From: Ruegeria spongiae
GTDB lineage: Bacteria > Pseudomonadota > Alphaproteobacteria > Rhodobacterales > Rhodobacteraceae
Assembly (NCBI RefSeq): GCF_023502395.1
Contig: NZ_JAMFMB010000006.1
Location: 62,001-126,000 of the forward strand
DNA: 64,000 bases
Direction of reading: 5' to 3'
Under the pieces are notes generated by a model. It did no database searches. It was not told the DNA's origin and was given only the letters and a program-made list of their open reading frames with translations. Shown piece by piece: positions 10,338 to 27,070 of the stretch. The translations under genes were made by a program, and so were the position numbers. How positions within the stretch are numbered: the first letter of the stretch is position 1; the number at the start of each line of letters is the position of its first letter.

Positions 10338-11825
10338 CTACCACCATTTCCCGGCTTTGGCCACAAAGCCCGCCGCAGACTCCAGCGCATAGGCCGTATT
10401 CAGCAGATCGCCCTCTTCCCAGGGCCGACCGATCAGTTGCAGACCCAGCGGAAGCCCTTGCTTGTCGACCCCCGCAGGCACCGAGATACCCGGCAGACCG
10501 GCCAGGTTGACGGTCACGGTGAACACGTCATTGAGATACATCTGCACCGGATCGGCATCGGTCATCTCGCCCAGACCAAAGGCCGCCGAAGGGGTGGCCG
10601 GGGTCAGGATCGCATCGACGCCTTGGGCGAACACATCCTCGAAATCCTTCTTGATCAGGGTGCGGACCCGGCGCGCGCGGTTGTAATAGGCATCGTAGAA
10701 GCCCGCCGACAGCACATAGGTGCCGATCATCACCCGGCGCTGCACCTCAGGGCCGAAGCCTTCAGCGCGGGTTTTCTCGTACATCTCGGTGATGCCGTCG
10801 CCCTGCGCCAGCGACGCCCGCTGGCCATAGCGCACCCCGTCATAGCGCGCCAGGTTCGACGAGGCCTCGGCAGGCGCGATCACGTAATAGGCGGGCAGCG
10901 CGTATTTGGTGTGTGGCAGCGAGATATCGACGATCTCGGCGCCCGCGTCTTTCAGCATCGCGGCGCCGTCGGCCCAAAGCTGTTCGATCTCGCCGGGCAT
11001 GCCCTCCATCCGGTATTCTTTCGGAATACCGATCTTCTTGCCCTTGATGTCGCCGGTCAGCATCGCCTCGAAATTCGGTACAGCCAGATCGGCAGAGGTG
11101 GAATCCTTGGGGTCGTGCCCGCACATCGCTTCCAGCATGATGGCGGCGTCGCGCACCGATTTGGTCATCGGCCCGGCCTGATCTAGCGAGGAGGCAAAGG
11201 CGATGATGCCCCAGCGCGAGCAGCGGCCATAGGTGGGCTTGATACCGGTGATGCCGGTGAAAGCAGCGGGCTGGCGGATCGAGCCGCCGGTATCCGTGCC
11301 GGTCGCGGCCAGACACAGGTCAGCAGCCACAGCACTGGCCGAGCCGCCCGAGGAGCCACCCGGCGTCAGCGGTGCATCATCATTGCCGCGCCGCCACGGG
11401 TTGACCACATTGCCATAGGTCGAGGTCTCGTTGCTGCTCCCCATGGCAAATTCGTCCATGTTCAGCTTGCCCAGCATGACGGCACCGGCATCGGCCAGTT
11501 GCTGACTGACGGTGGATTCATATTCCGGCTTGAACCCGTCGAGAATGGCGCTGGCGGCCTGACTTTCCACACCCTTGGTGCAGAAGAGATCCTTGATCCC
11601 CACCGGCAGACCACACATGGCAGGCGCATCACCCGCCTTGAGGCGGGTGTCAGCCGCCGCCGCACGTTCCATCGCCAGTTCAGGCGTCTTGTGAACAAAG
11701 GCGTTCAGGGCACCGGCGTCTTCGATGGCCTTCAGACAGGCCTCGGTCAGCTCGACCGAAGTGGCCTCGCCCTTGCGGAGCAGGTCGCGGGCCTCGCCCA
11801 GGCCCAATGTGTTCAGTTCGCTCAT
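10338..11825 (-). CDS. gatA: Asp-tRNA(Asn)/Glu-tRNA(Gln) amidotransferase subunit A
   Basis: A 495-residue amidase-signature subunit of GatCAB, which hydrolyses glutamine and supplies ammonia to convert misacylated Glu-tRNA(Gln) and Asp-tRNA(Asn). The catalytic Ser-cisSer-Lys triad is complete: K78 (GIKDLF), S158 (GGSSGG) and S182 ([10 protein letters not shown]), with the same spacing as characterised GatA. Its ATG overlaps the gatC stop by one base (TAATG), the usual gatCA arrangement. gatB is not in the window, so the complex is encoded at two loci here, as is common in this group. Confidence 0.98.
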
Positions 11826-16091: not shown

Positions 16092-17069
16092 ATGACCCGG
16101 CCTGTTCGCCCCTCGCCGGAACTGATCGCTGTCGTACAGCGCTGGAATCATGCGGTTCGAACCAAGGACAGGGCCGTGCTGTCCAACATGCTGTCGGGCT
16201 CCGATCACCTGCGGTATCAGGGCACGGCCGAAGGGGAAAGCTGGTCCGGCGCGCTGTTTCGCAAGGGGTTTCCCGATCATGTGGCCGAAATCCCGGATTT
16301 TGACTGGGACGAACACAGCCTCGAGGCCTTCGAATGCGGCGCGGTCGGCTGGGCGCATTGCATCGCAACGCTGCGCTTTGCCAGCAACCAAAAGGCGATG
16401 CTGCACCGGTTCACCTTTGTCCTGCATCTGGAAGACGGGCTGTGGAAGATGATCCAGTTCCACGTGTCCAACCCGATACCGAATATGGAAAAGATCGGCA
16501 TCGAACACAAAGCGCTAGAGGCGCTGATCGACGCGGCGCGGGACGGGTTCCGTCAGGGCCAGCGCGAGGGCATGGCATCGGTGATGTTCACGGATATCGT
16601 CAATTCCTCTGCCATCGCAGAAACGCTGGGGGATCGGGTCTGGACCGAAGCGGTTCGAAAACACCTCGACCTGACCCGTGATGCGATCGAGGGTCAAGGT
16701 GGTCAACTGGTAAAATCGCTGGGCGACGGAACGATGTCCAGCTTCTCTTCTGCGCGGGCCGCGTTGCTGGCAGCCACCGAGTTGCAGCGGCGCAACCGGA
16801 CACAGCAAGAGGACCCACAGCTTCGGATTCGCATCGGAATTCATTCAGGCGACGTGATCCAGACCGATGACGATTTTTTCGGAACGGTCGTGAACAAGGC
16901 GGCACGGGTTGCCGCCTCTGCCGAGCCGGGTGAGATTTGTGTGTCCGATGCGACGCGACTGCTGGCCGGCAGCGAGGGCGATCTGAGTTTCGGGGCCTCC
17001 CGGTCGGTCTTGCTGAAGGGCTTGCCCGGTGAACACACGACCTTCGCATTGAAGTGGTCGCAGACCTAA
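16092..17069 (+). CDS. NTF2-like domain fused to class III adenylate/guanylate cyclase
   Basis: A 325-residue soluble protein. Residues 1-130 look like an NTF2/SnoaL-type alpha+beta domain (WNHAVRTKDRAVLSNML, then HRFTFVLHLEDGLWKMIQFHVS), a fold used to bind small ligands. Residues 160-320 form a class III cyclase domain: FTDIVNSS with metal Asp168, SLGDGTMSSF with metal Asp212, IGIHSGDVI, and VVNKAARVAA with Asn268 and Arg272 of the transition-state pair. The enzyme would make cAMP (or cGMP) as a homodimer. The ligand controlling it is unknown. It sits 13 bases after the DoeA-like gene and overlaps the convergent tadA by 4 bases. Confidence 0.85.
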   Translation: MTRPVRPSPELIAVVQRWNHAVRTKDRAVLSNMLSGSDHLRYQGTAEGESWSGALFRKGFPDHVAEIPDFDWDEHSLEAFECGAVGWAHCIATLRFASNQKAMLHRFTFVLHLEDGLWKMIQFHVSNPIPNMEKIGIEHKALEALIDAARDGFRQGQREGMASVMFTDIVNSSAIAETLGDRVWTEAVRKHLDLTRDAIEGQGGQLVKSLGDGTMSSFSSARAALLAATELQRRNRTQQEDPQLRIRIGIHSGDVIQTDDDFFGTVVNKAARVAASAEPGEICVSDATRLLAGSEGDLSFGASRSVLLKGLPGEHTTFALKWSQT

Positions 17070-17515
17070 CGCCGCGCTGCAAAGAACGCCTTGAGCAGAC
17101 GCTCGGACTCCTCTGCGCCGATCCCATCGTAGACAAGTGGCGCATGATGCGCCTGAGGGTGGCTGAACACGCGCGCGCCATGGGCGACGCCGCCCGATTT
17201 CGGATCGGCGGCACCGTAGTAGATGCGCCCGATCCGGGCAGCGGCCAGTGCGGCGGCACACATCGCACAAGGCTCCAGCGTGACAAAAAGGTCATGCCCG
17301 GTCAGCCGCTCGGACCCGGCAGAGGCGCAGGCGGAGCGCAGGGCAAGGATTTCGGCATGCGCGGTGGGGTCGTTCAGTTCGCGGGTCCGGTTCCCGGCGG
17401 CGGCGGCCACGGTCCCGTCCGGCGCGACGATCACGGCACCCACCGGCACTTCGCCGCGCTTGGCAGCCGCGCGCGCTTCGTCCAGGGCCTGCGCCATGTG
17501 GGATCGGAACACCAT
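17066..17515 (-). CDS. tadA: tRNA-specific adenosine(34) deaminase
   Basis: A 149-residue zinc deaminase that converts A34 of tRNA-Arg(ACG) to inosine for wobble decoding. The catalytic HAE motif (His53, Glu55) and PCAMC motif (Cys83, Cys86) bind zinc and activate water. NDPTAHAEILALR and GRIYYGAADPKSGG are TadA-specific contexts, as opposed to cytidine or guanine deaminases. An alternative ATG lies at residue 7. It is convergent with the cyclase gene and divergent from rluB. Confidence 0.95.
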   Translation of the reverse strand: MVFRSHMAQALDEARAAAKRGEVPVGAVIVAPDGTVAAAAGNRTRELNDPTAHAEILALRSACASAGSERLTGHDLFVTLEPCAMCAAALAAARIGRIYYGAADPKSGGVAHGARVFSHPQAHHAPLVYDGIGAEESERLLKAFFAARR

Positions 17516-17576
17516 GCCCCTGACTGCCGCACATCTTCGGGTTTCGCAAGCCGGGCAAATGGTCTAAAGCCCGGCC

Positions 17577-18410
17577 ATGAGCACCACACCCCCTCCCGGC
17601 GACCGGATCGCCAAGGTTCTGGCCCGCGCCGGGATCGCCTCGCGCCGCGAAGCCGAACGCATGATCGAGGCCGGTCGCGTCACCGTAAACGGCAATAAGA
17701 TCGACAGCCCGGCGCTGAACGTCACTGCCAGTGACAAGATCACCGTCGATGGCAAACCCGTTGCTGAACCCGAACCCGCGCGGCTCTGGCTTTACAACAA
17801 GCCCACCGGGCTGGTGACCACGACCAGCGACGAGAAAGGCCGCGCCACCATCTATGACGGGCTGCCCGAAGAACTGCCGCGGGTGATGACCGTCGGTCGG
17901 CTCGACCTCAATTCCGAAGGGTTGTTGCTGCTGACCAATGATGGCGGCGTCAAGCGCAAGCTGGAACTGCCCTCGACCGGGTGGCTGCGCAAATACCGGG
18001 TCCGGATCAATGGCCGCCCCAAAGACGAGGATTTCGCACCGCTGCGCCAGGGTCTGGTGATCGACGGAGAGCGGTTCCAGAAAATGATCGTGACCCTGGA
18101 CCGCCAACAGGGCGCAAATGCCTGGATCACCATCGGGTTGCGCGAAGGCAAAAACCGCGAAATCCGCCGTGCGATGGAGGATATCGGCTTTGCCGTGAAC
18201 CGGCTGATCCGGGTGTCTTATGGCCCGTTCCAGCTGGGAAATCTCAAGTCGGGCGAGGTCGAAGAGGTGCGCCGTCGGGTGCTGCGCGACCAGCTTGGGT
18301 TGGACGTTGAAGTCAAGCCTGCCGACAAGCCAACGGGCAAACCCACCGGCAAACGCCCCGTCAGGCCGCAACGTCACCGCACGAGCGCGCCCAAAAACCC
18401 ACGCTCATGA
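17577..18410 (+). CDS. rluB: 23S rRNA pseudouridine synthase, RluB type
   Basis: A 277-residue RsuA/RluB-family enzyme. The N-terminal S4 RNA-binding domain (residues 9-65) includes GIASRREAERMIEAGRVTVNG. The catalytic core has GRLDLNSEGLLLLTNDG with catalytic Asp110, followed by GKNREIRRAM. The basic C-terminal tail, rich in Lys, Arg and Pro, is typical of RluB, which modifies U2605 of 23S rRNA. RluE and RluF differ in the tail. It stands divergent from tadA. Confidence 0.93.
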   Translation: MSTTPPPGDRIAKVLARAGIASRREAERMIEAGRVTVNGNKIDSPALNVTASDKITVDGKPVAEPEPARLWLYNKPTGLVTTTSDEKGRATIYDGLPEELPRVMTVGRLDLNSEGLLLLTNDGGVKRKLELPSTGWLRKYRVRINGRPKDEDFAPLRQGLVIDGERFQKMIVTLDRQQGANAWITIGLREGKNREIRRAMEDIGFAVNRLIRVSYGPFQLGNLKSGEVEEVRRRVLRDQLGLDVEVKPADKPTGKPTGKRPVRPQRHRTSAPKNPRS

Positions 18411-18492
18411 GTACTTTAGCGCAACCTTCCCCCTAGCAAGGCGCGCCTGCATCGCCTAGATTCGCGTCAACGTAGCCGCAATCGGGGGAGTC

Positions 18493-18582
18493 ATGTCTCA
18501 ATCTGGCATCCAGAAGGCCGCCTTTATAGGGCTTTTGATCCTGATGCTGGGTGTCGCCACCGGCTGGATCGGCGGGCTCTGA
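18493..18582 (+). CDS. Small hydrophobic membrane peptide, 29 residues
   Basis: ATG at 18493 follows GGGGGAG at a 5-base spacing. The frame encodes a 29-residue peptide of a short polar start (MSQSGIQ), one 18-20 residue hydrophobic helix and a GWIGGL end. The stop is 4 bases before the XpaC start, so it is the first cistron of that run. It has no sequence identity I can name. A single-pass inner-membrane microprotein is the simplest reading. Confidence 0.6.
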   Translation: MSQSGIQKAAFIGLLILMLGVATGWIGGL

Positions 18583-18586
18583 CGTC

Positions 18587-19495
18587 ATGGCACAGAAATT
18601 TGGCGGGAAATACAGCCCGCAATCGACCGATGACACCACACAGATCCCCAACCAGCGCGGCCAGTTCGACGGAGCGCGGGTCGATCCGGCGGGATTCCGC
18701 ACAAATATCCTGTTCCTGCCACCGCTGCTGATTGCGTTCTTTTCGCTCAATGACGGGGCGGTTGGCCTGACTCTGGGGCTGGTTGCCGCCGCCCTGCTGG
18801 TGCTGGCGGCCTGGGTGCTGCGCGAGGGGTTGCGCGCCGAAAGCGCCTATCACGCCCGCAAGGTGGCCCGCCGCCCGGCCTTTCCGCGCAAGATCTTCGC
18901 CTCGGCCCTGACCGGGCTGGGCATCGGTCTGGCCGCCTACAAGAATGATATGCTCGATGCCGGGTCCGCCAGCCTGCTGGCTCCGGCTCTCTATGGTATT
19001 GCCACGGCAGTGCTGCATGGGACGGCGTTTGGCCTCGACCCGATGCAGGACAAGGGCATGGAAGGCATCGACACCTTCCAGCAGGATCGCGTCGCCCGCG
19101 CCGTCGATGAAGCCGAAACGCTGCTGGCCGACATGAGCGATGCCATCAAACGCGCCGGTGATCGCAAGGTCGAGGCGCGGGTCGAACGGTTCCAGACCAC
19201 CGCGCGCGAGCTGTTCCGCACGGTCGAGGAAGACCCGCGCGACCTGACCGCCGCGCGCAAATATCTGACCGTCTATCTGCGCGGGGCCCGTGATGCCTCG
19301 ATCAAGTTTGCCGACATCCATGCCCGCACCAGCGATCCGCAGGCGCTGGCCGATTACACTGCGCTGCTGGACGATCTTGAGCAGAACTTCGCCGCGCGCA
19401 CCCGCAAGATGCTGCTGGATGACCGCAGCGACCTGACTGTTGAAATCGACGTGCTGCGGGAACGGTTGCAGCGCGAAGGCGTGCAGCTGGACTGA
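18587..19495 (+). CDS. XpaC-like protein (5-bromo-4-chloroindolyl phosphate hydrolysis family)
   Basis: A 302-residue protein with two or three N-terminal hydrophobic segments (ILFLPPLLIAFF, then LGLVAAALLVLAAWVL) and a cytoplasmic helical domain from about residue 160. The latter contains QDRVARAVDEAETLLADM and RKYLTVYLRGARDASIKFAD, typical of XpaC. In Bacillus and elsewhere XpaC is encoded beside TelA, as here. The chosen ATG at 18587 has a conserved MAQKFGGKYSP start; the frame is open 12 codons further but overlaps the small peptide. The family name is historical and no enzyme activity is assumed. Confidence 0.85.
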   Translation: MAQKFGGKYSPQSTDDTTQIPNQRGQFDGARVDPAGFRTNILFLPPLLIAFFSLNDGAVGLTLGLVAAALLVLAAWVLREGLRAESAYHARKVARRPAFPRKIFASALTGLGIGLAAYKNDMLDAGSASLLAPALYGIATAVLHGTAFGLDPMQDKGMEGIDTFQQDRVARAVDEAETLLADMSDAIKRAGDRKVEARVERFQTTARELFRTVEEDPRDLTAARKYLTVYLRGARDASIKFADIHARTSDPQALADYTALLDDLEQNFAARTRKMLLDDRSDLTVEIDVLRERLQREGVQLD

Positions 19496-19527
19496 CCGGC
19501 ACGTCTGAGTAATTAGGGGAGAGATTC

Positions 19528-20718
19528 ATGTCCGATACCGTCCGCAAAAAGGCCGCCGAGGCGACCGCAATCGTCGATGAGGTGACCGCGATCACCTTGC
19601 CGGAACCGCAAAACGCCATCGTTCCGCTGGAAGAGGCCGACGAACCGGTCAAGGCCGAAATCCGAAGCCGTATGAACGAGATCAGTATGGACGACACCAA
19701 CTCGATCGTGTCCTTCGGGTCCGGCGCGCAGGCTGAGTTGCAGGAAATCAGTCAGGCCATGCTGGCCGATGTGCGCAACAAGGATGTGGGTCCTGCCGGT
19801 GACAGTCTGCGCAACATCGTGACCACCATTCGCGGCTTTTCGGTCAGCGAGCTGGATGTGCGGCGCAAGGCAAGCTGGTGGGAACGGCTGATGGGCCGGG
19901 CCGCGCCTTTTGCCAAATTCACCGCCCGCTTCGAAGAGGTGCAGGGCCAGATCGATAAAGTCACCGATGACCTGCTGGGCCACGAACATACGCTGCTGAA
20001 AGACATCAAATCGCTCGACCTGCTCTATGACAAGACGCTGGGATTTTATGACGAGCTGGCGCTGTATATCGCGGCGGGCGAGGAAAAGCTGACCGAGTTG
20101 GACAGCACCGACATCCCCGAAAAAGAAGCCGCAGTCGCGGCTGCGCCCGAGGAAGACCAAGTGATGAAGGCGCAGGAGCTGCGCGACCTGCGTGCCGCCC
20201 GCGACGATCTGGAACGCCGGGTCCATGACCTGAAACTGACGCGGCAGGTGACGATGCAGTCGCTGCCCTCGATCCGACTGGTGCAGGAGAACGACAAGTC
20301 GCTGGTGACCAAGATCAACTCGACGCTGGTCAATACCGTACCGCTCTGGGAGACCCAGCTGGCGCAGGCCGTCACCATCCAGCGCAGCGCCGAAGCCGCC
20401 GCCGCCGTGCGCGACGCCAATGACCTGACCAACGAGTTGCTGACCGCCAATGCCGCCAATCTGCGTGAAAGCAACAAGATGATCCGGCAGGAAATGGAAC
20501 GCGGCGTCTTCGACATCGAAGCGGTCAAACAGGCCAATGCCGACCTGATCGGCACCATCAACGAAAGCCTGCAGATCGCAGACGAGGGCAAGGCCAAACG
20601 CGCCGCCGCCGAAGAGGAACTGCAAAAGATGGAGACCGAACTGCGCGATACGCTGGCTTCGGCCAAGGCGCGCAAGGACGGTCTGGGCGACACCGCATCC
20701 ACAGCGGTTCCCGGCTGA
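19528..20718 (+). CDS. telA: TelA / toxic anion resistance protein
   Basis: A 396-residue, mostly helical cytoplasmic protein. The TelA core is seen in VRRKASWWERLMG (about residues 110-122), LLKDIKSLDLLYDKTL and QSLPSIRLVQENDKSLVTKINSTLVNTVPLWETQLAQAV (residues 250-290), followed by coiled coil. Family members support resistance to tellurite, lithium or cell-wall antibiotics, by an unknown route that is probably envelope-related. It is 32 bases after XpaC with a GGGGAG ribosome binding site. DUF2927 follows after 6 bases. One operon is likely. Confidence 0.92.
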   Translation: MSDTVRKKAAEATAIVDEVTAITLPEPQNAIVPLEEADEPVKAEIRSRMNEISMDDTNSIVSFGSGAQAELQEISQAMLADVRNKDVGPAGDSLRNIVTTIRGFSVSELDVRRKASWWERLMGRAAPFAKFTARFEEVQGQIDKVTDDLLGHEHTLLKDIKSLDLLYDKTLGFYDELALYIAAGEEKLTELDSTDIPEKEAAVAAAPEEDQVMKAQELRDLRAARDDLERRVHDLKLTRQVTMQSLPSIRLVQENDKSLVTKINSTLVNTVPLWETQLAQAVTIQRSAEAAAAVRDANDLTNELLTANAANLRESNKMIRQEMERGVFDIEAVKQANADLIGTINESLQIADEGKAKRAAAEEELQKMETELRDTLASAKARKDGLGDTASTAVPG

Positions 20719-20724
20719 CCTTCG

Positions 20725-21699
20725 GTGCGGCGCGCTGGGGCACATTCTCGGGTCCGTGCGACCCGGATCGGGGCCACGGCCCTTGCCCTGGTGCTGCTTG
20801 CCGCCTGTGAGCAGGGCCTTCAAACCTCGCTGACGCCGCCCCTCCGCCCTGAAGGGCTGGTCCCGGCAAAGCCGGTCGTGGTCGCGCCCTCGGCCAAAAG
20901 CCAGGATCTGGCGCGCTACTACGAAAAGGTGCAGAACGATCTGCTGACCCGCGGGCTGCTGCGCGTGGATGGCGGCGGCCCCGACACGCCCTATGATTCC
21001 GAAGATCTGGTGCGCAATTTCGAAGTGATCGCTTTTTTCGACGAATACGCCCAGACCGCAACGCCGCTGTCCAGCCGCCGCGCCAGCGGACGGCTGAGCC
21101 GCTGGTCCGGCCCGGTGCGGATCAGGACCGAGTTCGGTGCCTCGGTCCCGCTGGAACGGCGCGAACAGGACCGCAAGAATGTCGCCAATTTCGCGGACCG
21201 CCTTGCGCGGCTGACCGGGCATCCGATCAGCGCCGGCAGCCGAAACCCGAATTTTCACGTTTTTGTGGCGGGCGAGGACGATACCGCATTTGTCCAGGCG
21301 CGATTGAAACAGATTATCCCCTCGATCAGCGCAAATGAACTGGTGCTGTTCGACGATCTCCCGCGCTCGTTCTATTGCCTTGTCGTTGCTGTATCCGGCA
21401 ATGGCGCGCCGCAGAACTATACCCGCGCGGTGGCGCTTGTGCGGGCCGAACACCCCGATCTGGTGCGGCTCAGCTGCATCCACGAAGAGATTTCGCAAGG
21501 GCTGGGACTGCCCAATGACAGCCCCGCCGCGCGGCCCTCGATCTTCAATGACGATGACGAGTTTGCGCTGCTGACCAGCCATGACGAGAAACTGCTGAAA
21601 ATGCTCTATGATCCGCGCCTGCGGCAGGGCATGACCGCCGACGAGGCCCGCCCGATAACCCAGCAAATTGCGTTGGAACTTACGGGCCCGTCTTCATAG
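20725..21699 (+). CDS. DUF2927 lipoprotein, metalloprotease-like
   Basis: A 324-residue protein with a signal peptide ending in the lipobox LLAAC (Cys28), so it is a lipoprotein. The DUF2927 domain (about residues 90-290) includes NPNFHVFVAG and CIHEEISQGLGLPNDS near residue 252. HEEISQGLGL resembles the HExxxxGLxL helix of zinc proteases, though proteolysis has not been shown for the family. It starts at a GTG (20725) 6 bases after telA. It is probably periplasmic and works on the same envelope function as its neighbours. Confidence 0.8.
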   Translation: MRRAGAHSRVRATRIGATALALVLLAACEQGLQTSLTPPLRPEGLVPAKPVVVAPSAKSQDLARYYEKVQNDLLTRGLLRVDGGGPDTPYDSEDLVRNFEVIAFFDEYAQTATPLSSRRASGRLSRWSGPVRIRTEFGASVPLERREQDRKNVANFADRLARLTGHPISAGSRNPNFHVFVAGEDDTAFVQARLKQIIPSISANELVLFDDLPRSFYCLVVAVSGNGAPQNYTRAVALVRAEHPDLVRLSCIHEEISQGLGLPNDSPAARPSIFNDDDEFALLTSHDEKLLKMLYDPRLRQGMTADEARPITQQIALELTGPSS

Positions 21700-21725
21700 G
21701 CCCAAAGACAGGAGAACGATTGACC

Positions 21726-22874
21726 ATGGGTATTTTCGACTTTCTTTCCGGTGAATTCATCGATGTCATCCATTGGGTCGATGACACCCGCGACACCATG
21801 GTCTGGCGGTTCCAGCGCGAAGGCCATGAGATCAAATACGGCGCCAAGCTGACCGTGCGCGAAGGGCAGTCGGCAGTGTTTGTGCATGAAGGGCAATTGG
21901 CGGATGTGTTCACGCCGGGGCTTTATATGCTCGAGACCAACAACATGCCGATCATGACGACGCTGCAGCATTGGGATCACGGCTTCAAGAGCCCGTTCAA
22001 ATCCGAGATCTATTTCGTCAACACGACCCGGTTCAACAACCTCAAATGGGGCACCAAGAACCCGATCATGCTGCGGGACCCGGAATTTGGCCCCACCCGC
22101 ATCCGCGCCTTTGGCACCTATACGGTGCGGGTGAAGGACCCGGCCAAGTTCCTGATCGAGATCGTCGGCACCGACGGCGAGTTCACCATGGACGAGATCA
22201 GCTATCAGATCCGCAACATCATCGTGCAGGAGTTTTCCCGTGTCATCGCAGGCTCGGGCATTCCGGTGCTGGACATGGCCGCCAACACCGCCGATCTGGG
22301 CAAGCTGATCGCGGCAGAGGTCTCGCCGGTGCTGGACAGCTACGGGCTGGAGATGCCGGAGTTCTACATCGAGAACATCTCGCTACCGCCTGCAGTCGAG
22401 GCAGCCTTGGACAAGCGGACATCCATGGGGCTGGCCGGTGATCTGGGCAAGTTCACGCAATATTCCGCCGCCGAAGCGATGACCGCTGCTGCCACCAACC
22501 CGAGCGGGGGTGGCGGTATGGGCGCGGGCCTTGGCATGGGAATGGGCATGGCGATGGCGCAGCAAATGGGGAACATGGCAGCGGGGCAACCCAGCGGTCC
22601 CTGGGGCGCGCCCGCCCCCGCTGCCACGCAACCGGCAGCATCCGTGGCACCGCCACCCCCGCCCCCCGTTGAGCATGTGTGGCATATCGCGGTGGAGGGC
22701 CAGACCTCGGGGCCGTTTTCCAAGGCCAAGCTGGGGCGGATGGCCACAGCCGGAGAGATCACCCGCGAGACCTATGTCTGGACCGCTGGTCAGGACGGCT
22801 GGAAACGCGCCGAGGACGTGCAGGAACTGGCGCAGCTGTTTACCATTCTGCCACCGCCGCCTCCGGGCATCTGA
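21726..22874 (+). CDS. SPFH-domain protein with C-terminal GYF_2 domain (YdjI-like)
   Basis: A 382-residue protein. Residues 1-240 form an SPFH/band-7 domain of the virion-core/YdjI subgroup (DVIHWVDDTRDTMVWRF, VREGQSAVFVHEGQLADVF, LPPAVEAALDKR). A Gly/Met-rich linker (about 260-290) and a Pro run follow. A GYF_2 (DUF4339) module at about 318-370 has HVWHIAVEGQTSGPFS and YVWTAGQDGW. It has no membrane helix of its own. The TTG at 21720 is an alternative start. Bacillus YdjI pairs with the zinc-ribbon YdjG, and the same pair is seen here. Confidence 0.88.
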   Translation: MGIFDFLSGEFIDVIHWVDDTRDTMVWRFQREGHEIKYGAKLTVREGQSAVFVHEGQLADVFTPGLYMLETNNMPIMTTLQHWDHGFKSPFKSEIYFVNTTRFNNLKWGTKNPIMLRDPEFGPTRIRAFGTYTVRVKDPAKFLIEIVGTDGEFTMDEISYQIRNIIVQEFSRVIAGSGIPVLDMAANTADLGKLIAAEVSPVLDSYGLEMPEFYIENISLPPAVEAALDKRTSMGLAGDLGKFTQYSAAEAMTAAATNPSGGGGMGAGLGMGMGMAMAQQMGNMAAGQPSGPWGAPAPAATQPAASVAPPPPPPVEHVWHIAVEGQTSGPFSKAKLGRMATAGEITRETYVWTAGQDGWKRAEDVQELAQLFTILPPPPPGI

Positions 22875-22877
22875 CCC

Positions 22878-23966
22878 GTGGCGGAGCTTGAGCATCGGTT
22901 TCCCTGCGACCAATGCGGGGCCGATTACCGGTTTGATCCGCAAAGCGGCGGGCTGGTCTGTGGCCATTGTGGCCATTCCGAGCAGATCAGCGCCGGGCCG
23001 TGGAAGGGCGGCGCCCTGCGCGAGTTGGATTTCGACACCGCCATGGCGCAGGCCCTGCCCGAGGCCGAGATCGAAGAAACCCGCGTGCTGTCATGCCCCA
23101 ATTGCGCGGCGCAGGTCGAGTTTGACCCCGACAGCCATGCCGCCGAATGCCCGTTCTGCGCCACCCCTGTGGTGACCGGCACCGGTATCAACCGCCACAT
23201 CAAGCCGCGCGGCGTGCTGCCTTTCGCACTGGACGAGCGCACCGCACAAAAGGCCATGTCGGATTGGCTGGGCGCGCTTTGGTTTGCACCAAATGGGTTG
23301 CAGGACTACGCCCGCAAGGGGCGCAAGATGCAGGGCATCTATGTGCCCTATTGGACCTTCGACGCGGATACCAAATCGCGCTACCGGGGCGAACGTGGCG
23401 TGGTCTATTACGTGACCCGCACGGTCATGCGCGATGGCAAGAAGGTACAACAGCAGGTTCCGAAAATACGCTGGTCACCGAAATCGGGCCGCGTGGCGCG
23501 GTTCTTTGACGATGTGCTGGTGCTGGCCTCACGTTCGCTGCCCAAGAAATACACCGACGCGCTGGAACCCTGGGACCTGCCCGCGCTGGAGCCGTATCAG
23601 CCGGAATATCTGGCCGGGTTCCGGGCCGAGGCCTATACGGTCGAGCTGAAAGAGGGCTATGGCGAGGCGCGCGCGCATATGGACCGGGTGATCGACCGCG
23701 ATGTACGCTTTGACATCGGCGGCGACCGGCAGCGCGTCCACGGGATCGAAACCGCCGTCTCGGATGTGACCTTCAAGCATATCCTGCTGCCGGTCTGGCT
23801 GGCGGCCTACAAGTTCCGCGGCGAGACGTACCGCTTTGTGGTGAATGGCCGGACCGGCCGGGTGCAGGGCGAACGCCCCTGGTCGGTGATCAAGATCACC
23901 ATCGCGGTCACCCTCGGGCTGCTGGTAGCGGCGGGCGTCGGATATGTGGTCGCGACCAATCAATAA
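22878..23966 (+). CDS. Zinc-ribbon membrane-anchored protein (YdjG-like)
   Basis: A 362-residue protein with two N-terminal zinc ribbons: Cys10/Cys13 with Cys28/Cys31, and Cys73/Cys76 with Cys91/Cys94. A conserved middle (GIYVPYWTFDADTKSRYRG, HILLPVWLAAYKFRGETYRFVVNG) and one C-terminal transmembrane helix (VIKITIAVTLGLLVAAGVGYVV) follow. Homologues are often misnamed primosomal protein N' or TFIIB-like. In B. subtilis the similar YdjG anchors YdjI/PspA at the membrane. The start is a GTG 3 bases after the SPFH gene, so the two are coupled. Confidence 0.85.
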   Translation: MAELEHRFPCDQCGADYRFDPQSGGLVCGHCGHSEQISAGPWKGGALRELDFDTAMAQALPEAEIEETRVLSCPNCAAQVEFDPDSHAAECPFCATPVVTGTGINRHIKPRGVLPFALDERTAQKAMSDWLGALWFAPNGLQDYARKGRKMQGIYVPYWTFDADTKSRYRGERGVVYYVTRTVMRDGKKVQQQVPKIRWSPKSGRVARFFDDVLVLASRSLPKKYTDALEPWDLPALEPYQPEYLAGFRAEAYTVELKEGYGEARAHMDRVIDRDVRFDIGGDRQRVHGIETAVSDVTFKHILLPVWLAAYKFRGETYRFVVNGRTGRVQGERPWSVIKITIAVTLGLLVAAGVGYVVATNQ

Positions 23967-23984
23967 GGCATGAAGGGGCAGCGG

Positions 23985-24656
23985 ATGGACCTGCAGGCAT
24001 TGGACGCATTGATGGCAGAGCGGCACTCCTGCCGCGCCTTCGCGCCCACCGAGATACCGAAAGCCACGATCGCGCAGGTCCTTGCCACCGCCCGCCGGGC
24101 GCCAAGCTGGTGCAATGCCCAGCCCTGGCGGGTCGATGTGACCCGTGGTGCCGCGACCGACCGGTTTCGCGCGGCGCTGATCGAACAGGCGCAAAGCACC
24201 GCACCGAAACCCGATCTGCCCTTTCCCGGCTCTTATAGCGGCGTCTTTCAGGACCGGCGGCGCGCCTGTGGCTGGGCGCTCTATGAGGCGGTGGGGGTCA
24301 CCAAGGGCGACCGGGCGGGATCGGCGCGTGAGATGATGCGGAACTTTGCGCTGTTCGACGCGCCGCATTGCGCGGTCATCTCAAGCCCGGCGGAACTGGG
24401 CGCCTATGGGGCGATGGATTGCGGTGGCTTCGTCACCGCCTTTTGCCTGGCCGCTCAGGCGCTTGGCATCGCGACGATCCCGCAAGCCGCGGTGGCCAGC
24501 CATGGCCCGTTCCTGCACCGGTATTTTGACATTCCGCAGGATTTTCTGGTGCTGTGTGCGATCTCGTTCGGTTATTCCGACACCGCGCATCCAGCCAACG
24601 GGTTTCGCACCGATCGGGCTGAACTGGATGCGTTCACGCAGTGGCACGACGGTTGA
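23985..24656 (+). CDS. Nitroreductase family protein
   Basis: A 223-residue FMN-dependent oxidoreductase. The N-terminal [13 protein letters not shown] and [12 protein letters not shown] supply the FMN phosphate-binding and active-site loops; the late [14 protein letters not shown] and [18 protein letters not shown] are typical. It would reduce nitro-aromatics or quinones with NAD(P)H; the real substrate is unknown. The ATG at 23985 has AAGGGG six bases upstream and is preferred over the in-frame ATG at 23970. It is in the same run as the zinc-ribbon gene and dtd. Confidence 0.88.
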
Positions 24657-24675
24657 ACAAGGGAGCGTTGGCGAG

Positions 24676-25125
24676 ATGCGCGCATTGATCCAGAGAGTGA
24701 CACAGGCCCGTGTCACGGTCGAAGGCGAAACGGTCGGTCAGATCGGCGCAGGCCTGCTGATCCTGATGTGCGCCATGCGGGGCGATAACGACGCAGAAGC
24801 GGTACAGCTTGCCGCCAGAATCGCCAAACTGCGGATCTTTCGCGATACGGCGGGCAAGATGAACCTTTCGGTGAAAGACACCGGTGGCGCGGCGCTGGTT
24901 GTCAGCCAGTTCACCCTGGCCGCCGACACCAGACGCGGCAACAGACCCGGATTTTCAGAGGCGGCGGCATCCGATGAGGGCAAGCGCCTGTATCAGGTCT
25001 TTGGCGAACAACTGCACAGCCACGGCATCCCGGTCGAACGGGGGGTGTTCGGCGCGGATATGGCGGTTGAGCTTACCAATAGCGGCCCGGTAACGATCTG
25101 GTTGGACACTGCAGACAGGCACTGA
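24676..25125 (+). CDS. dtd: D-aminoacyl-tRNA deacylase
   Basis: A 149-residue quality-control enzyme that removes D-amino acids (and Gly from tRNA-Ala) from t[18 protein letters not shown] at the start, SQFTLAAD near residue 77 and the cis-Gly-Pro motif [10 protein letters not shown] near residue 136 are diagnostic. An upstream ORF in the same frame overlaps the nitroreductase and is not real; the gene starts at 24676, after GGGAG. It is the last gene of the run beginning at 18493. Confidence 0.96.
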
Positions 25126-25483
25126 ATGCGGCCCGAACGACCCGAAGAAGGAGGAATCAACTTGCCCCGCAGCGCCTGCACCCAGCCTCGAAATGAGGTC
25201 ATCAGGGCACTTGCGCCTGGCACAATTCCCTTTGAAACATGAAAAAGGCAAACCGGGTCGACCCCCGGTCCGGTGCCAAGCGCACCATTGATTCAAGCGG
25301 GGAAGCGACACTATCACCACGCAATGCGACACCGCATTAGGACCAGAGCAAAGCGCAAGAGTGTCCCATGGAGGGCATACCGGACATTAAGCCTTGCCGG
25401 GCGGTGCGAAATACGCAAACCTTGACTCGCCAATCAACAAAAACCGCGCGCCAAGCGCGCAGCTTCTCAACCGGGAGATCTCG
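25126..25483. other. 358-base leader upstream of the ABC operon, with a possible 26-codon peptide
   Basis: AAGGAGG (25148-25154) stands 7 bases before a TTG at 25162 that opens a 26-codon frame ending at 25242 (PRSACTQPRNEVIRALAPG within it). The ribosome binding site is perfect but the codons carry no recognisable product. ACCGGG-tcga-CCCCCGGT (about 25255-25272) and GCGCGC-caa-GCGCGC (about 25446-25460) could fold. The latter lies just before the ribosome binding site of the substrate-binding protein. A TTGACT at about 25422 could be a -35 element. Confidence 0.35.
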
Positions 25484-27070
25484 ATGAACGACCAACTTGA
25501 CTATATGTCCGGCCGCGTGACGGCTGGAAAAATGAACCGCCGTGAGTTCATGGGCAAAGCCGCAGCCTTGGGTGTGTCCACCGCTGTTGCCAGCACCATG
25601 TTTGCCAGCGCGGTCAAGGCAGCCGGCCCGGTCAAGGGCGGCACCTTCAAAATGGGCATCCAGGGCGGTGAAAGCACCAACACCCAGGACCCGGCGCTTT
25701 ATGCATCCGACGTGCCGATCGGTGGTGGCCGTCACTGGGGTGAAACCCTGGTCGAAGTGGACGCCAATGGCGAGTTGGAAGGCCTGGTCGCCGAAAGCTG
25801 GGAAGGCTCGGCAGATGCCAAGACCTGGCGCTTCAAGATCCGCCAGGGCATCGAGTTTTCGAACGGCCAGCCCGTGACCGCCGAGGATGTGAAGCGCACG
25901 ATCGAGCGTCACACCAACGAGGATTCCAAATCGGGTGCGCTTGGCATCGTGCAGGACATCGAGTCGATGCGCACCGATGGCGACACGTTCGAACTGACGT
26001 TGGGCTCGGCCAATGCGGACATGCCCTATCTGATCAGCGACTATCACCTGGTGATCCAGCCCGATGGTGGCTTTGACAACCCGAACGCCGCAATCGGCAC
26101 CGGTCCCTATGTGCTTGAATCGGACGAGCCGGGCGTGCGCATGAGCTTCGTCAAGAACCCCAATTATTGGGACGATTCGATGGGGCATTACGAAAGCACG
26201 GAGATTCTGACCCTCAACGACGCAACCGCACGCACCGCGGCGTTGCAGTCCGGCCAGGTTGACGCGATCATCCGGGTGGAACCGAAGATCGCACAGCTGC
26301 TTGATCGCGCACCGAACCTGTCCGTCAAAAGCGTGTCGGGCCGTGGTCACTATGTGTTCATCATGCATGTGGACACCGCCCCGTTCGACGAGAATGAACT
26401 GCGGCTGGCGCTGAAATACGCGATCAATCGCGAGGAACTGGTCGACAAGATCCTGCGTGGTTACGGTGGCATCGGCAACGATATGCCCATCAACGCAGCC
26501 TATCCGCTGTTCGATGACACGATCCCGCAGCGCGCCTTTGATCTGGAAAAGGCCAAGGAGCATTACGCCAAGTCCGGCCATGACGGCTCGCCCATCATCC
26601 TGCGCACCGCCGATGGCGCCTTCCCCGGCGCGGTGGACGCGGCAGCCCTGTTCCAGCAATCGGCGCAGGCCGCCGGTATTCCGCTGGAGATCAAGCGCGA
26701 ACCCAATGACGGCTACTGGTCGGAAGTCTGGAACGTTCAGCCGTTCTGCGCCTCTTACTGGTCGGGCCGCCCGGTGCAGGACCAGATGTACACCACGGCC
26801 TATCTGTCGACCGCAGACTGGAACGACACACGCTGGAAACGCACCGAATTCGACGAGATGCTGCTGTCGGCAAAGGCCGAACTGGACCCGGCCAAGCGCA
26901 AGGAGATCTACTCCAAGATGGGTCGGATGGTGAACGAGCAAGGCGGTCTGATCTGCCCGATGTTCAACGACTTCATCGACGCCGTGTCGAACAATGTGCA
27001 GGGTTGGGAAAGTGATCCGAATGGCGCAATGATGAACTGGTATGCTCCTAAAAAGACCTGGAAAGCCTAA
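25484..27070 (+). CDS. Peptide-type ABC transporter substrate-binding protein, Tat-exported
   Basis: A 528-residue family 5 solute-binding protein. The N-terminus has a twin-arginine motif (MNRREFMGK near residue 17) followed by a hydrophobic stretch ending ASAVKAAG, so export by Tat is likely. Body motifs such as GETLVEVDANGELEGLVAESWE, YVLESDEPGVRMSFVKNPNYWDD and LRLALKYAINREELV are typical. It captures a peptide, opine or similar ligand in the periplasm; the ligand cannot be read from sequence. It is the first gene of a four-gene operon. Confidence 0.92.
   Translation: MNDQLDYMSGRVTAGKMNRREFMGKAAALGVSTAVASTMFASAVKAAGPVKGGTFKMGIQGGESTNTQDPALYASDVPIGGGRHWGETLVEVDANGELEGLVAESWEGSADAKTWRFKIRQGIEFSNGQPVTAEDVKRTIERHTNEDSKSGALGIVQDIESMRTDGDTFELTLGSANADMPYLISDYHLVIQPDGGFDNPNAAIGTGPYVLESDEPGVRMSFVKNPNYWDDSMGHYESTEILTLNDATARTAALQSGQVDAIIRVEPKIAQLLDRAPNLSVKSVSGRGHYVFIMHVDTAPFDENELRLALKYAINREELVDKILRGYGGIGNDMPINAAYPLFDDTIPQRAFDLEKAKEHYAKSGHDGSPIILRTADGAFPGAVDAAALFQQSAQAAGIPLEIKREPNDGYWSEVWNVQPFCASYWSGRPVQDQMYTTAYLSTADWNDTRWKRTEFDEMLLSAKAELDPAKRKEIYSKMGRMVNEQGGLICPMFNDFIDAVSNNVQGWESDPNGAMMNWYAPKKTWKA

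What the first reader, a model, noticed from the sequence alone, without database searches (positions are those of the whole stretch)
18493..23966. Envelope-stress-like operon joining XpaC-TelA with a YdjI/YdjG-type SPFH and zinc-ribbon pair
Five genes plus a small peptide run with gaps of 4-33 bases: microprotein, XpaC, TelA, DUF2927 lipoprotein, SPFH-GYF and zinc-ribbon TM protein. XpaC-TelA and YdjI-YdjG are each known pairs in Firmicutes. Their combination with a periplasmic, HExxxxGL-containing lipoprotein suggests a cross-envelope module with a cytoplasmic scaffold, a membrane anchor and an outer sensor or processor. I know of no described function for the whole set.
Basis: partly seen in the sequence, partly recalled or inferred. 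Interest (0 to 1): 0.65.

Follow-up and report, generated by a model that had tools for sequence, protein, structure and literature searches.

The report
Fused TelA and SPFH membrane operon
A block of genes that nearly every sampled bacterium of one order carries joins two old membrane-stress gene pairs into one unit and adds an exported protein that looks like a protein-cutting enzyme with its metal-binding site rewritten; what the unit does has not been shown, but it is now directly testable.

Summary
At 18493-23966 lie, on one strand with gaps of 3-32 bases, a 29-residue membrane peptide, XpaC, TelA, a DUF2927 lipoprotein, an SPFH-GYF protein and a double zinc-ribbon tail-anchored protein (ZnR). 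The link is not chance: SPFH follows TelA on the same strand within 5 kb in 115 of 121 Rhodobacterales genomes, and contiguous XpaC-TelA-SPFH-ZnR recurs in four genomes of three other alphaproteobacterial families (TelA 54-57% identical). DUF2927 is absent from those four. Outside Alphaproteobacteria none of 17 SPFH genomes examined links it to TelA; there SPFH-ZnR stands alone or, in an Enterococcus plasmid, with TPM (as YdjI-YdjG-YdjH).

DUF2927 models as a matrix-metalloproteinase (metzincin) fold, but the zinc-binding HExxHxxGxxHD reads EExxQxxGxx[ND]D: an altered or lost active site, so a sensor or binding protein rather than a standard zinc protease.

Most likely role (inferred): an inner-membrane protection module in which the ZnR-anchored SPFH scaffold positions XpaC-TelA, much as YdjGHI positions PspA in Bacillus. 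This genome has no detectable PspA. Reported Rhodobacter telA tellurite resistance and Listeria telA nisin tolerance fit. Function and physical contact are untested. Verdict: a new variant of known kinds.

The parts
18426..18437 (+). Conserved upstream element CTTCCCCCTAGC, followed by a -10-like block (CCTAGATT) about 18 bases after its CTAG
   Evidence: Alignment of 65 upstream regions: 11 of 12 positions at least 93% identical, the first 82%. The 10-mer TTCCCCCTAG occurs exactly somewhere in 72 of 80 relatives and 4 times in the 4.59 Mb genome (reversed control 2). Match within 2 mismatches upstream in 8 of 30 order-wide TelA loci. Promoter role inferred.
18493..18582 (+). 29-residue single-membrane-span peptide
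   Evidence: homologous frame in 79 of 80 relatives; purifying selection in frame; hydropathy peak 2.09
18587..19495 (+). XpaC (PF10112), N-terminal membrane segments and a domain after them
19528..20718 (+). TelA (PF05816), no membrane span, long helices in a low-confidence model
20725..21699 (+). DUF2927 lipoprotein (PF11150): metzincin-like fold with EExxQxxGxxND instead of HExxHxxGxxHD; lipobox LAAC followed by E
21726..22874 (+). SPFH (Band_7_1, PF13421) with Pro-rich linker, GYF_2 domain and Pro-rich tail; no membrane span
22878..23966 (+). ZnR: two zinc ribbons (four CxxC pairs), YdjG-type, C-terminal membrane span 340-358
23970..24656 (+). Nitroreductase, 3 bases after ZnR; probably co-transcribed here; found in 63 of 80 relatives after ZnR with variable gaps, not core

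Best explanation
The block is one functional module of the inner membrane, made in Alphaproteobacteria by joining XpaC-TelA to a YdjI/YdjG-type SPFH-ZnR pair. Proposed working: ZnR, anchored by its C-terminal span with its zinc ribbons in the cytosol, recruits the soluble SPFH protein to the membrane. SPFH oligomerises, perhaps with GYF domains gripping the Pro-rich linkers or tails of neighbours. The platform positions TelA, a soluble long-helix protein held at the membrane by XpaC, at damaged or perturbed membrane, so TelA fills the place that PspA fills in the Bacillus pspA-ydjGHI system. In Rhodobacterales a secreted DUF2927 lipoprotein with a metzincin-like fold and a rewritten metal site was added as an outward-facing binding or sensing part, and in the Roseobacter group a 29-residue membrane peptide as a small XpaC partner. 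Shown here: gene order, conservation, domain content, fold prediction and site replacement. Inferred: all contacts, topology details, recruitment, membrane protection and the sensing role.
For: SPFH follows TelA in 115 of 121 order genomes; XpaC lies upstream in 30 of 30 order-wide TelA loci read. Contiguous XpaC-TelA-SPFH-ZnR in 4 genomes of 3 further families, at 27-34% (XpaC), 54-57% (TelA), 46-56% (SPFH) and 40-49% (ZnR) identity, without collinear flanks. In a 192-genome class sample all 9 genomes with a strong Band_7_1 protein (E 1e-70 or better) carry TelA, against 17 TelA genomes in all: Fisher p 3e-11, or 5e-8 without the own order, not corrected for ancestry. In the order, G200 and G295 lack both TelA and SPFH, and G274 has only a weak TelA and no SPFH. 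ZnR homology to an SPFH-ZnR-TPM set. Literature: YdjI with YdjG/H brings PspA to the membrane (PMC8581546, abstract and passages; PMC9239133, passages); an XpaC-like gene and telA1 of L. lactis at 10.3 and 3.44 in a table of its transcriptomic response to membrane-protein overproduction (PMC3139573, title, start of abstract and one table passage); Listeria lmo1967 mutant more sensitive to nisin and tellurite (PMC12791056, passage); R. sphaeroides telA listed as a tellurite-resistance determinant (PMC6955997, passage).
Against: No contact, localisation or phenotype has been measured. SPFH-ZnR stands without TelA elsewhere: 0 of 17 non-alphaproteobacterial SPFH genomes link them, and 4 of 17 have a TelA at all, each on another contig. 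The co-occurrence beyond linkage is thin: of the 9 class genomes, 7 are the linked ones; in G128 TelA belongs to the other TelA-x-XpaC arrangement on another contig, and in G010 TelA is of a remote type, far from SPFH. With the Band_7_1 cut-off of 24 bits instead of E 1e-70, 25 genomes count and 10 of them have TelA; the extra 16 are weak matches. G270 has XpaC-TelA-DUF2927 without SPFH. The TelA model is weak (pLDDT 70.6) and no PspA/ESCRT-III entry is in the listed matches. SPFH lacks the YdjI zinc ribbon, and no TPM protein is among the genes scanned in the block. 37 of 121 order genomes carry a divergent PspA as well, so PspA is not simply replaced. 74 of the 80 close loci also keep the tadA-rsuA flank, so those loci alone prove little.
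Confidence: 0.43

Rival explanations
1. The block is chiefly a metalloid-oxyanion (tellurite, selenite) resistance operon: TelA-XpaC limit uptake or damage of oxyanions, and the rest serves the same end.
For: telA of Rhodobacter sphaeroides, same order, is cited as a tellurite-resistance gene (PMC6955997, passage; the 1997 original is not held). A strong TelA is in 118 of 121 order genomes, one per genome, so that gene is by inference this ortholog. Paracoccus TelA was seen in a plastic biofilm metaproteome (PMC11962581, passage).
Against: A gene kept by almost the whole order in a block with a lipoprotein and a scaffold is hard to explain by a rare oxyanion (inference). Listeria telA affects nisin as well as tellurite, and lactococcal xpaC-telA are in a membrane-protein stress response table. 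No Ter family or redox domain is among the Pfam matches of the five proteins.
Confidence: 0.2
2. Two independent membrane-maintenance modules share one promoter because the same condition calls for both; no physical complex exists across the two pairs.
For: Each pair occurs without the other beside it in other lineages. G128 keeps TelA-XpaC and SPFH-ZnR on separate contigs.
Against: Joined order kept at about 55% TelA identity without collinear flanks. TelA is present in 9 of 9 strong-SPFH alphaproteobacterial genomes of the class sample, though in the two unlinked ones TelA is of another type.
Confidence: 0.27
3. DUF2927 is an active metallopeptidase using an unusual metal site (Glu/Gln/Asn ligands) and processes envelope proteins on command of the module.
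For: MMP-like fold (Z 10.3, 147 residues aligned, rmsd 3.1); the Glu at the catalytic position is invariant in 62 of 62 aligned sequences.
Against: The three His ligand positions read Glu, Gln and Asn/Asp in 14 of 15 distinct sequences, and none has HExxHxxGxxH. The register against metzincins is my reading of the motif, not a printed residue map.
Confidence: 0.12
4. Chance neighbourhood kept only by recent common ancestry.
For: 74 of the 80 nearest loci also share the tadA-rsuA flank.
Against: Recurrence in three other families at 27-57% identity without collinear flanks.
Confidence: 0.02

Closest known systems
Bacillus subtilis pspA-ydjGHI operon (Psp membrane-stress system)
   Same: A soluble Band_7 SPFH protein beside a membrane protein with two zinc ribbons; a further soluble partner (PspA there, TelA here) encoded with them (PMC8581546 and PMC11237479, passages)
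   Different: No PspA or TPM/YdjH gene in the block; GYF instead of a zinc ribbon at the SPFH C-terminus; adds XpaC-TelA, DUF2927 and a micropeptide
XpaC-TelA (XpaC-YaaN) pair of Firmicutes
   Same: Both families, XpaC before TelA (Listeria lmo1966-1967 in PMC12791056; lactococcal llmg_1115-1116 in PMC3139573)
   Different: There named as a pair; here followed by SPFH-ZnR
TelA-(solute-binding+VWA)-XpaC clusters of other Alphaproteobacteria
   Same: TelA and XpaC families
   Different: XpaC short and downstream of TelA, separated by an about 1.6 kb gene, seen as solute-binding plus VWA by Pfam in L183; no SPFH-ZnR in those loci. Similar spacing in L176, L181 and L185, whose middle gene was not scanned
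Matrix metalloproteinases / metzincins
   Same: Predicted fold of DUF2927 residues 98-298
   Different: HExxHxxGxxHD (recalled) replaced by EExxQxxGxx[ND]D
SPFH-ZnR dyads of Vibrio, Comamonas, Tsukamurella; SPFH-ZnR-TPM of Enterococcus
   Same: Adjacent SPFH and ZnR genes, ZnR 36%, 33%, 31% and 25% identical to the query
   Different: No TelA or XpaC beside them

Membership tests
XpaC family (PF10112) | Score above the curated cut-off | tested here: met
   105.4 bits, cut-off 29.8
TelA family (PF05816) | Score above the curated cut-off | tested here: met
   360 bits, cut-off 30
DUF2927 (PF11150) | Score above the curated cut-off | tested here: met
   207.5 bits, cut-off 26.2
YdjI-type SPFH | Band_7_1 domain without a membrane span | tested here: met
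   337.7 bits, cut-off 24; no hydropathy peak above 1.6
YdjI-type SPFH | C-terminal zinc finger/ribbon | tested here: not met
   GYF_2 at 319-368 instead; the Enterococcus relative has a sub-cut-off double zinc ribbon match
YdjG-type protein | Two N-terminal zinc ribbons and a membrane span | tested here: met
   Eight Cys invariant in 74 of 74; span 340-358; Pfam zinc-ribbon matches stay below their cut-offs
YdjG-type protein | Homology to the zinc-ribbon protein of an SPFH-ZnR-TPM operon | tested here: met
   25.3% over 94%, E 3e-25; B. subtilis YdjG itself was not at hand
YdjG-type protein | YpeB/NTF2-like middle domain | not tested
Psp response system | PspA/IM30 protein encoded | tested here: not met
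   No PF04012 match at E 1e-10 in the own genome; 37 of 121 order genomes have one
ESCRT-III/PspA-like membrane remodeller (for TelA) | Shared fold | tested here: inconclusive
   Model pLDDT 70.6; helical matches only, best Z 12.5 to alpha-pore-forming proteins, below the helical caution level of about 13
Metzincin peptidases (for DUF2927) | Metzincin fold | tested here: met
   MMP-7 Z 10.3, 147 aligned, rmsd 3.1; the 50 listed entries are MMP or MMP-like catalytic domains (a second look at Foldseek's matches). Foldseek's best E is 3.7e-3 with probability 1.00; no match reached 1e-3, and a few unrelated folds stand lower in its list. Rests on a predicted model.
Metzincin peptidases (for DUF2927) | Zinc-binding HExxHxxGxxH | tested here: not met
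   EExxQxxGxx[ND]D in 14 of 15 distinct sequences, 13 of them with N; none has HExxHxxGxxH
Metzincin peptidases (for DUF2927) | Bound zinc and peptidase activity | not testable with these tools
   Needs protein
Known anti-phage defence systems | Match to a PADLOC model | tested here: not met
   0 families for 5 proteins at E 0.1

The most novel reading that the evidence does not exclude
TelA is a second, PspA-independent effector of YdjI/YdjG-type SPFH scaffolds: Alphaproteobacteria replaced PspA by XpaC-TelA to build their own membrane-repair machine, and Rhodobacterales fitted it with an outward-facing sensor made from a metalloprotease fold whose zinc site was rewritten. It would explain both tellurite and nisin phenotypes of telA as membrane damage phenotypes.
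Probability: 0.22. Interest if true: 0.78.

Novelty: new variant of a known kind. Interest (0 to 1): 0.52.

Why it matters
TelA is named for tellurite resistance, and a review says that the molecular basis of most such systems is unclear (PMC6955997, passage). Here it is a near-universal gene of one bacterial order, one strong copy per genome, tied to a scaffold of a kind known to bring PspA to the membrane in Bacillus. That makes a plain prediction (TelA localisation depends on SPFH and ZnR) that one mutant and one fluorescent fusion can test. The DUF2927 result turns a family of unknown function into a metzincin-fold family with a replaced metal site, found in 120 of 121 order genomes searched.

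Tried and rejected
Anti-phage defence: no PADLOC match for the five proteins. RNA element: no Rfam match at the gathering score in 17000-26000. PspA: none in the own genome at E 1e-10; presence of PspA shows no tie to the contiguous block in the class sample (1 of 7 against 27 of 185, p 1.0). TelA as an ESCRT-III fold: not supported; the listed matches are long-helix proteins, led by ClyA-type alpha-pore-forming proteins at Z 12.5, under the level at which helical matches mean much. GYF ligand idea: all 76 close SPFH proteins have a Pro-rich tail, 56 of them PPG plus a residue from a set that included Ala, so the recalled PPG-hydrophobic GYF motif is met only loosely; no PPG-hydrophobic motif in the XpaC, TelA, DUF2927, ZnR or peptide sets. 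Promoter class: the upstream element and -10-like block recall sigma-32-type promoters (CTTG-N18-CCGATGTT in L119, L120 and L122, which are of one genus), but that consensus is recalled, and the passages seen of a Rhodobacter RpoH paper (PMC3441632) neither name telA nor print a consensus; left open. A sigma-70 scan found nothing on this strand. My first count of the element in order-wide loci (6 of 30) left out 12 loci lying in reverse; the recount is 8 of 30. My first count of the peptide (71 of 80) demanded ATG; one search adds 8. Extra genes in the SPFH-ZnR gap (cytochrome b561, CPCC protein, DSP-like phosphatase) vary and are not core. Sequence-only searches of the PDB with DUF2927, TelA, SPFH, ZnR and XpaC queries gave nothing useful except the GYF domain of a gliding protein for SPFH. 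Papers: DUF2927 in 0 held papers; XpaC, TelA, SPFH (two of three) gave 21 papers, none of the 15 listed on such an operon; TelA, tellurite, Band 7, XpaC (three of four) gave one, on Listeria; searches listed none on it either, as far as titles and abstract starts show.


Full report
What is there. Six genes run on the + strand at 18493-23966 with gaps of 4, 32, 6, 26 and 3 bases: a 29-residue peptide, XpaC, TelA, DUF2927, SPFH-GYF and ZnR. Pfam places XpaC, TelA, DUF2927 and SPFH far above their cut-offs; ZnR has only sub-cut-off zinc-ribbon matches. Upstream lies an rsuA-type pseudouridine synthase gene.

The peptide is a gene. A short membrane frame, mostly with QK near its start and GGL at its end, lies next to the XpaC start in 79 of 80 relatives: 71 with ATG, 5 with GTG or TTG, and 3 with a matching sequence but an unclear start; the 80th locus, L075, is cut at the start of XpaC. 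It was not recognised in 5 loci outside that group (which prints 73 of 85 because two unlike sequences, in L174 and L189, also passed its rule). In 65 sequences the median pN/pS is 0.31 in frame and 1.24 and 2.35 in the shifted frames; the pairs are not independent, so this is a comparison, not a test.

How far the order is kept. The 80 nearest loci, the best of 484 matches to the window's DUF2927, all hold XpaC-TelA-DUF2927 in this order; SPFH follows in 78 and ZnR in 73. Of the 7 without ZnR, 4 are short loci that end at a contig end (L030, L037, L060, L079) and 3 have 6 kb after DUF2927 without it (L004, L028, L055). In 74 of the 80 the tadA-rsuA flank is shared too, so these loci say little on selection. 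In 121 Rhodobacterales genomes a strong TelA is in 118 and a strong Band_7_1 SPFH in 117, all 117 with TelA; in 115 SPFH follows TelA on the same strand within 5 kb. The two others are G237 (different contigs) and G299 (13.6 kb apart). XpaC lies before TelA in 30 of 30 TelA loci read, the 30 best by score; I did not search XpaC in the rest. In 3 genomes (G197, G209, G212) the TelA-SPFH gap has no room for DUF2927. G270 has XpaC-TelA-DUF2927 but no SPFH; G200 and G295 have neither TelA nor SPFH, and G274 has only a weak TelA. DUF2927 is in 120 of 121, often with a second copy elsewhere.

Outside the order but inside the class (192 genomes), 17 genomes have TelA above the cut-off and 9 have a strong Band_7_1 protein (E 1e-70 or better); all 9 are among the 17 (Fisher p 3e-11; 6 of 6 and p 5e-8 without the own order; not corrected for ancestry). 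By the Band_7_1 cut-off itself 25 genomes count and 10 of them have TelA; the extra 16 are weak matches, probably other SPFH proteins. Four of the 9, G112, G046, G100 and G188 from three families, hold contiguous XpaC-TelA-SPFH-ZnR without DUF2927. Identity to the window is 27-34% for XpaC, 54-57% for TelA, 46-56% for SPFH and 40-49% for ZnR. Frames called from the whole window find no collinear neighbours there; the one flank match, the amidase gene after ZnR in L174, is 29% like a window frame at 10338-11825, on the other side of the block. One flanking gene scanned per locus gave four different families. G128 and G010, the other two outside the order, have TelA unlinked and of other types: G128's is in the TelA-x-XpaC arrangement, G010's scores only 39 bits with my TelA profile. 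So the four-gene block looks like the old core, and DUF2927 and the peptide like later additions.

Outside the class, in a phylum sample of 299 genomes, 17 non-alphaproteobacterial genomes have Band_7_1 SPFH. In the stretches I took, some cut by contig ends, 0 of 17 have TelA or XpaC beside it, 9 of 17 have ZnR beside it with a high score, 3 have a weak ZnR match and 5 none. Four of the 17 have a TelA, each on another contig. Of 12 plasmid records with a ZnR match I opened five: Vibrio, Comamonas and Tsukamurella show SPFH-ZnR, Enterococcus SPFH-ZnR-TPM, and the unannotated Paracoccus denitrificans record shows TelA-DUF2927-SPFH-ZnR, with no XpaC recognised in the 1.8 kb before TelA. SPFH, ZnR and TPM proteins are what B. 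subtilis YdjI, YdjG and YdjH are described as in PMC11237479 (passages). The joining of the two pairs was therefore seen only in Alphaproteobacteria.

DUF2927. Its AlphaFold2 model is good (pLDDT 84.5, pTM 0.79). Foldseek's best match is the MMP-11 catalytic domain (E 3.7e-3, probability 1.00); no match reached 1e-3, and a few unrelated folds stand lower in the list. VIA-align, a second look at those matches, gives MMP-7 at Z 10.3 with 147 residues aligned at 3.1 A, and the 50 listed entries are MMP or MMP-like catalytic domains. The local motif C-x-H-E-E-x-x-Q-G-L-G-x-x-[ND]-D is invariant in the 81 close sequences, with N in 78. Set against the metzincin HExxHxxGxxHD (recalled), Glu254, Gln258 and Asn264 stand where the zinc-binding histidines should be, while Glu255 stands at the catalytic position. 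This argues against a standard zinc peptidase and for a binding or sensing domain. The register is my reading of the motif; no residue map was printed. The protein has a lipobox LAAC with Glu after the Cys; a simple lipobox pattern was found in 57 of 81 close sequences as I called their starts.

SPFH, ZnR, XpaC, TelA. SPFH has no membrane span and has a Pro-rich linker, a GYF domain and a Pro-rich tail (tail in all 76 close sequences), where the Enterococcus relative has a zinc-ribbon-like match. ZnR has four CxxC pairs and a C-terminal span. XpaC has at least one and probably two or more N-terminal spans, TelA none. The TelA model is mostly very long helices at low confidence; matches to ClyA-type pore-forming proteins (Z 12.5) and the lack of a listed PspA match are both inconclusive.

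Function. Nothing here measures it. In B. subtilis, YdjI with YdjG and YdjH is required to bring PspA to the membrane (PMC8581546 abstract and passages), with two-hybrid data placing YdjI between PspA and YdjG or YdjH (PMC9239133 passages). In Lactococcus an XpaC-like gene and telA1 stand at 10.3 and 3.44 in a table of the response to membrane-protein overproduction, in a paper on the CesSR stress regulator (PMC3139573, title, start of abstract and one passage). In Listeria a lmo1967 (TelA-like) mutant is more sensitive to nisin and tellurite (PMC12791056 passage). R. sphaeroides telA is listed among tellurite determinants (PMC6955997 passage). The own genome has no PspA match at E 1e-10, and 37 of 121 order genomes have a divergent one. 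The reading I favour is that TelA, held by XpaC, is the effector that an SPFH-ZnR platform positions at the membrane. The main rivals are shared expression without contact and a dedicated oxyanion-resistance role.

Regulation. The stretch before the peptide holds CTTCCCCCTAGC and, about 25 bases on, a -10-like block, both strongly conserved in 65 aligned sequences. The 10-mer TTCCCCCTAG is exact somewhere in 72 of 80 relatives and has 4 sites in the genome (control pattern 2). Within 2 mismatches it is found upstream in 8 of 30 order-wide TelA loci, and not before XpaC in the four block loci outside the order. It is probably a clade-specific control site of unknown binder.

Verdict. A real, strongly conserved operon of known families in a combination for which I found no description in the searches made, with a new structural reading of DUF2927. 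New variant of known kinds; interest moderate, with a clear experiment that could raise it.

Noticed in passing
18426-18465: A 12-base element CTTCCCCCTAGC plus a -10-like block, nearly fixed in Roseobacter relatives; binder unknown. One of the 4 exact genome sites of its inner 10-mer lies about 140 bases before a frame that by eye starts with a twin-arginine-like export signal (L242).
   Followed up: partly
18493-18582: A 29-residue membrane peptide gene, present in 79 of 80 relatives, short enough to be missed by gene callers.
   Followed up: yes
L246:6824-8191 (own genome, contig 65): A second DUF2927 protein with a long C-terminal extension after the metzincin-like domain and the same EExxQ site.
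   Followed up: partly
L247:2320-12651: Several DUF2927 genes close together in another alphaproteobacterium (7 matches in that genome), one with a degenerate motif.
   Followed up: no
L190 (genome G299), about 5.6-16.6 kb: About 11 kb inserted between the DUF2927-SPFH-ZnR genes and TelA, with an integrase-like reading frame by eye (not checked): perhaps an island inside the operon.
   Followed up: no
L176, L181, L183, L185: Another TelA arrangement: TelA, a gene of about 1.6 kb (solute-binding plus VWA in L183), short XpaC.
   Followed up: partly
L005:8135-8656; L007:8078-8395; L002:8176-8652; L012:9516-9935: Variable genes between SPFH and ZnR in relatives: cytochrome b561, CPCC protein, DSP-like phosphatase. 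A reverse-strand Hsp20 gene (one scanned, L012) follows ZnR, and similar frames are seen in several other loci.
   Followed up: partly
19513-21666, minus strand: A 717-residue open frame antisense to TelA and DUF2927; most likely a by-product of high G+C coding, not a gene.
   Followed up: no
TelA model (window 19528-20718): Best structural matches are ClyA-type alpha-pore-forming proteins (Z 12.5); inconclusive, worth a deeper alignment.
   Followed up: partly
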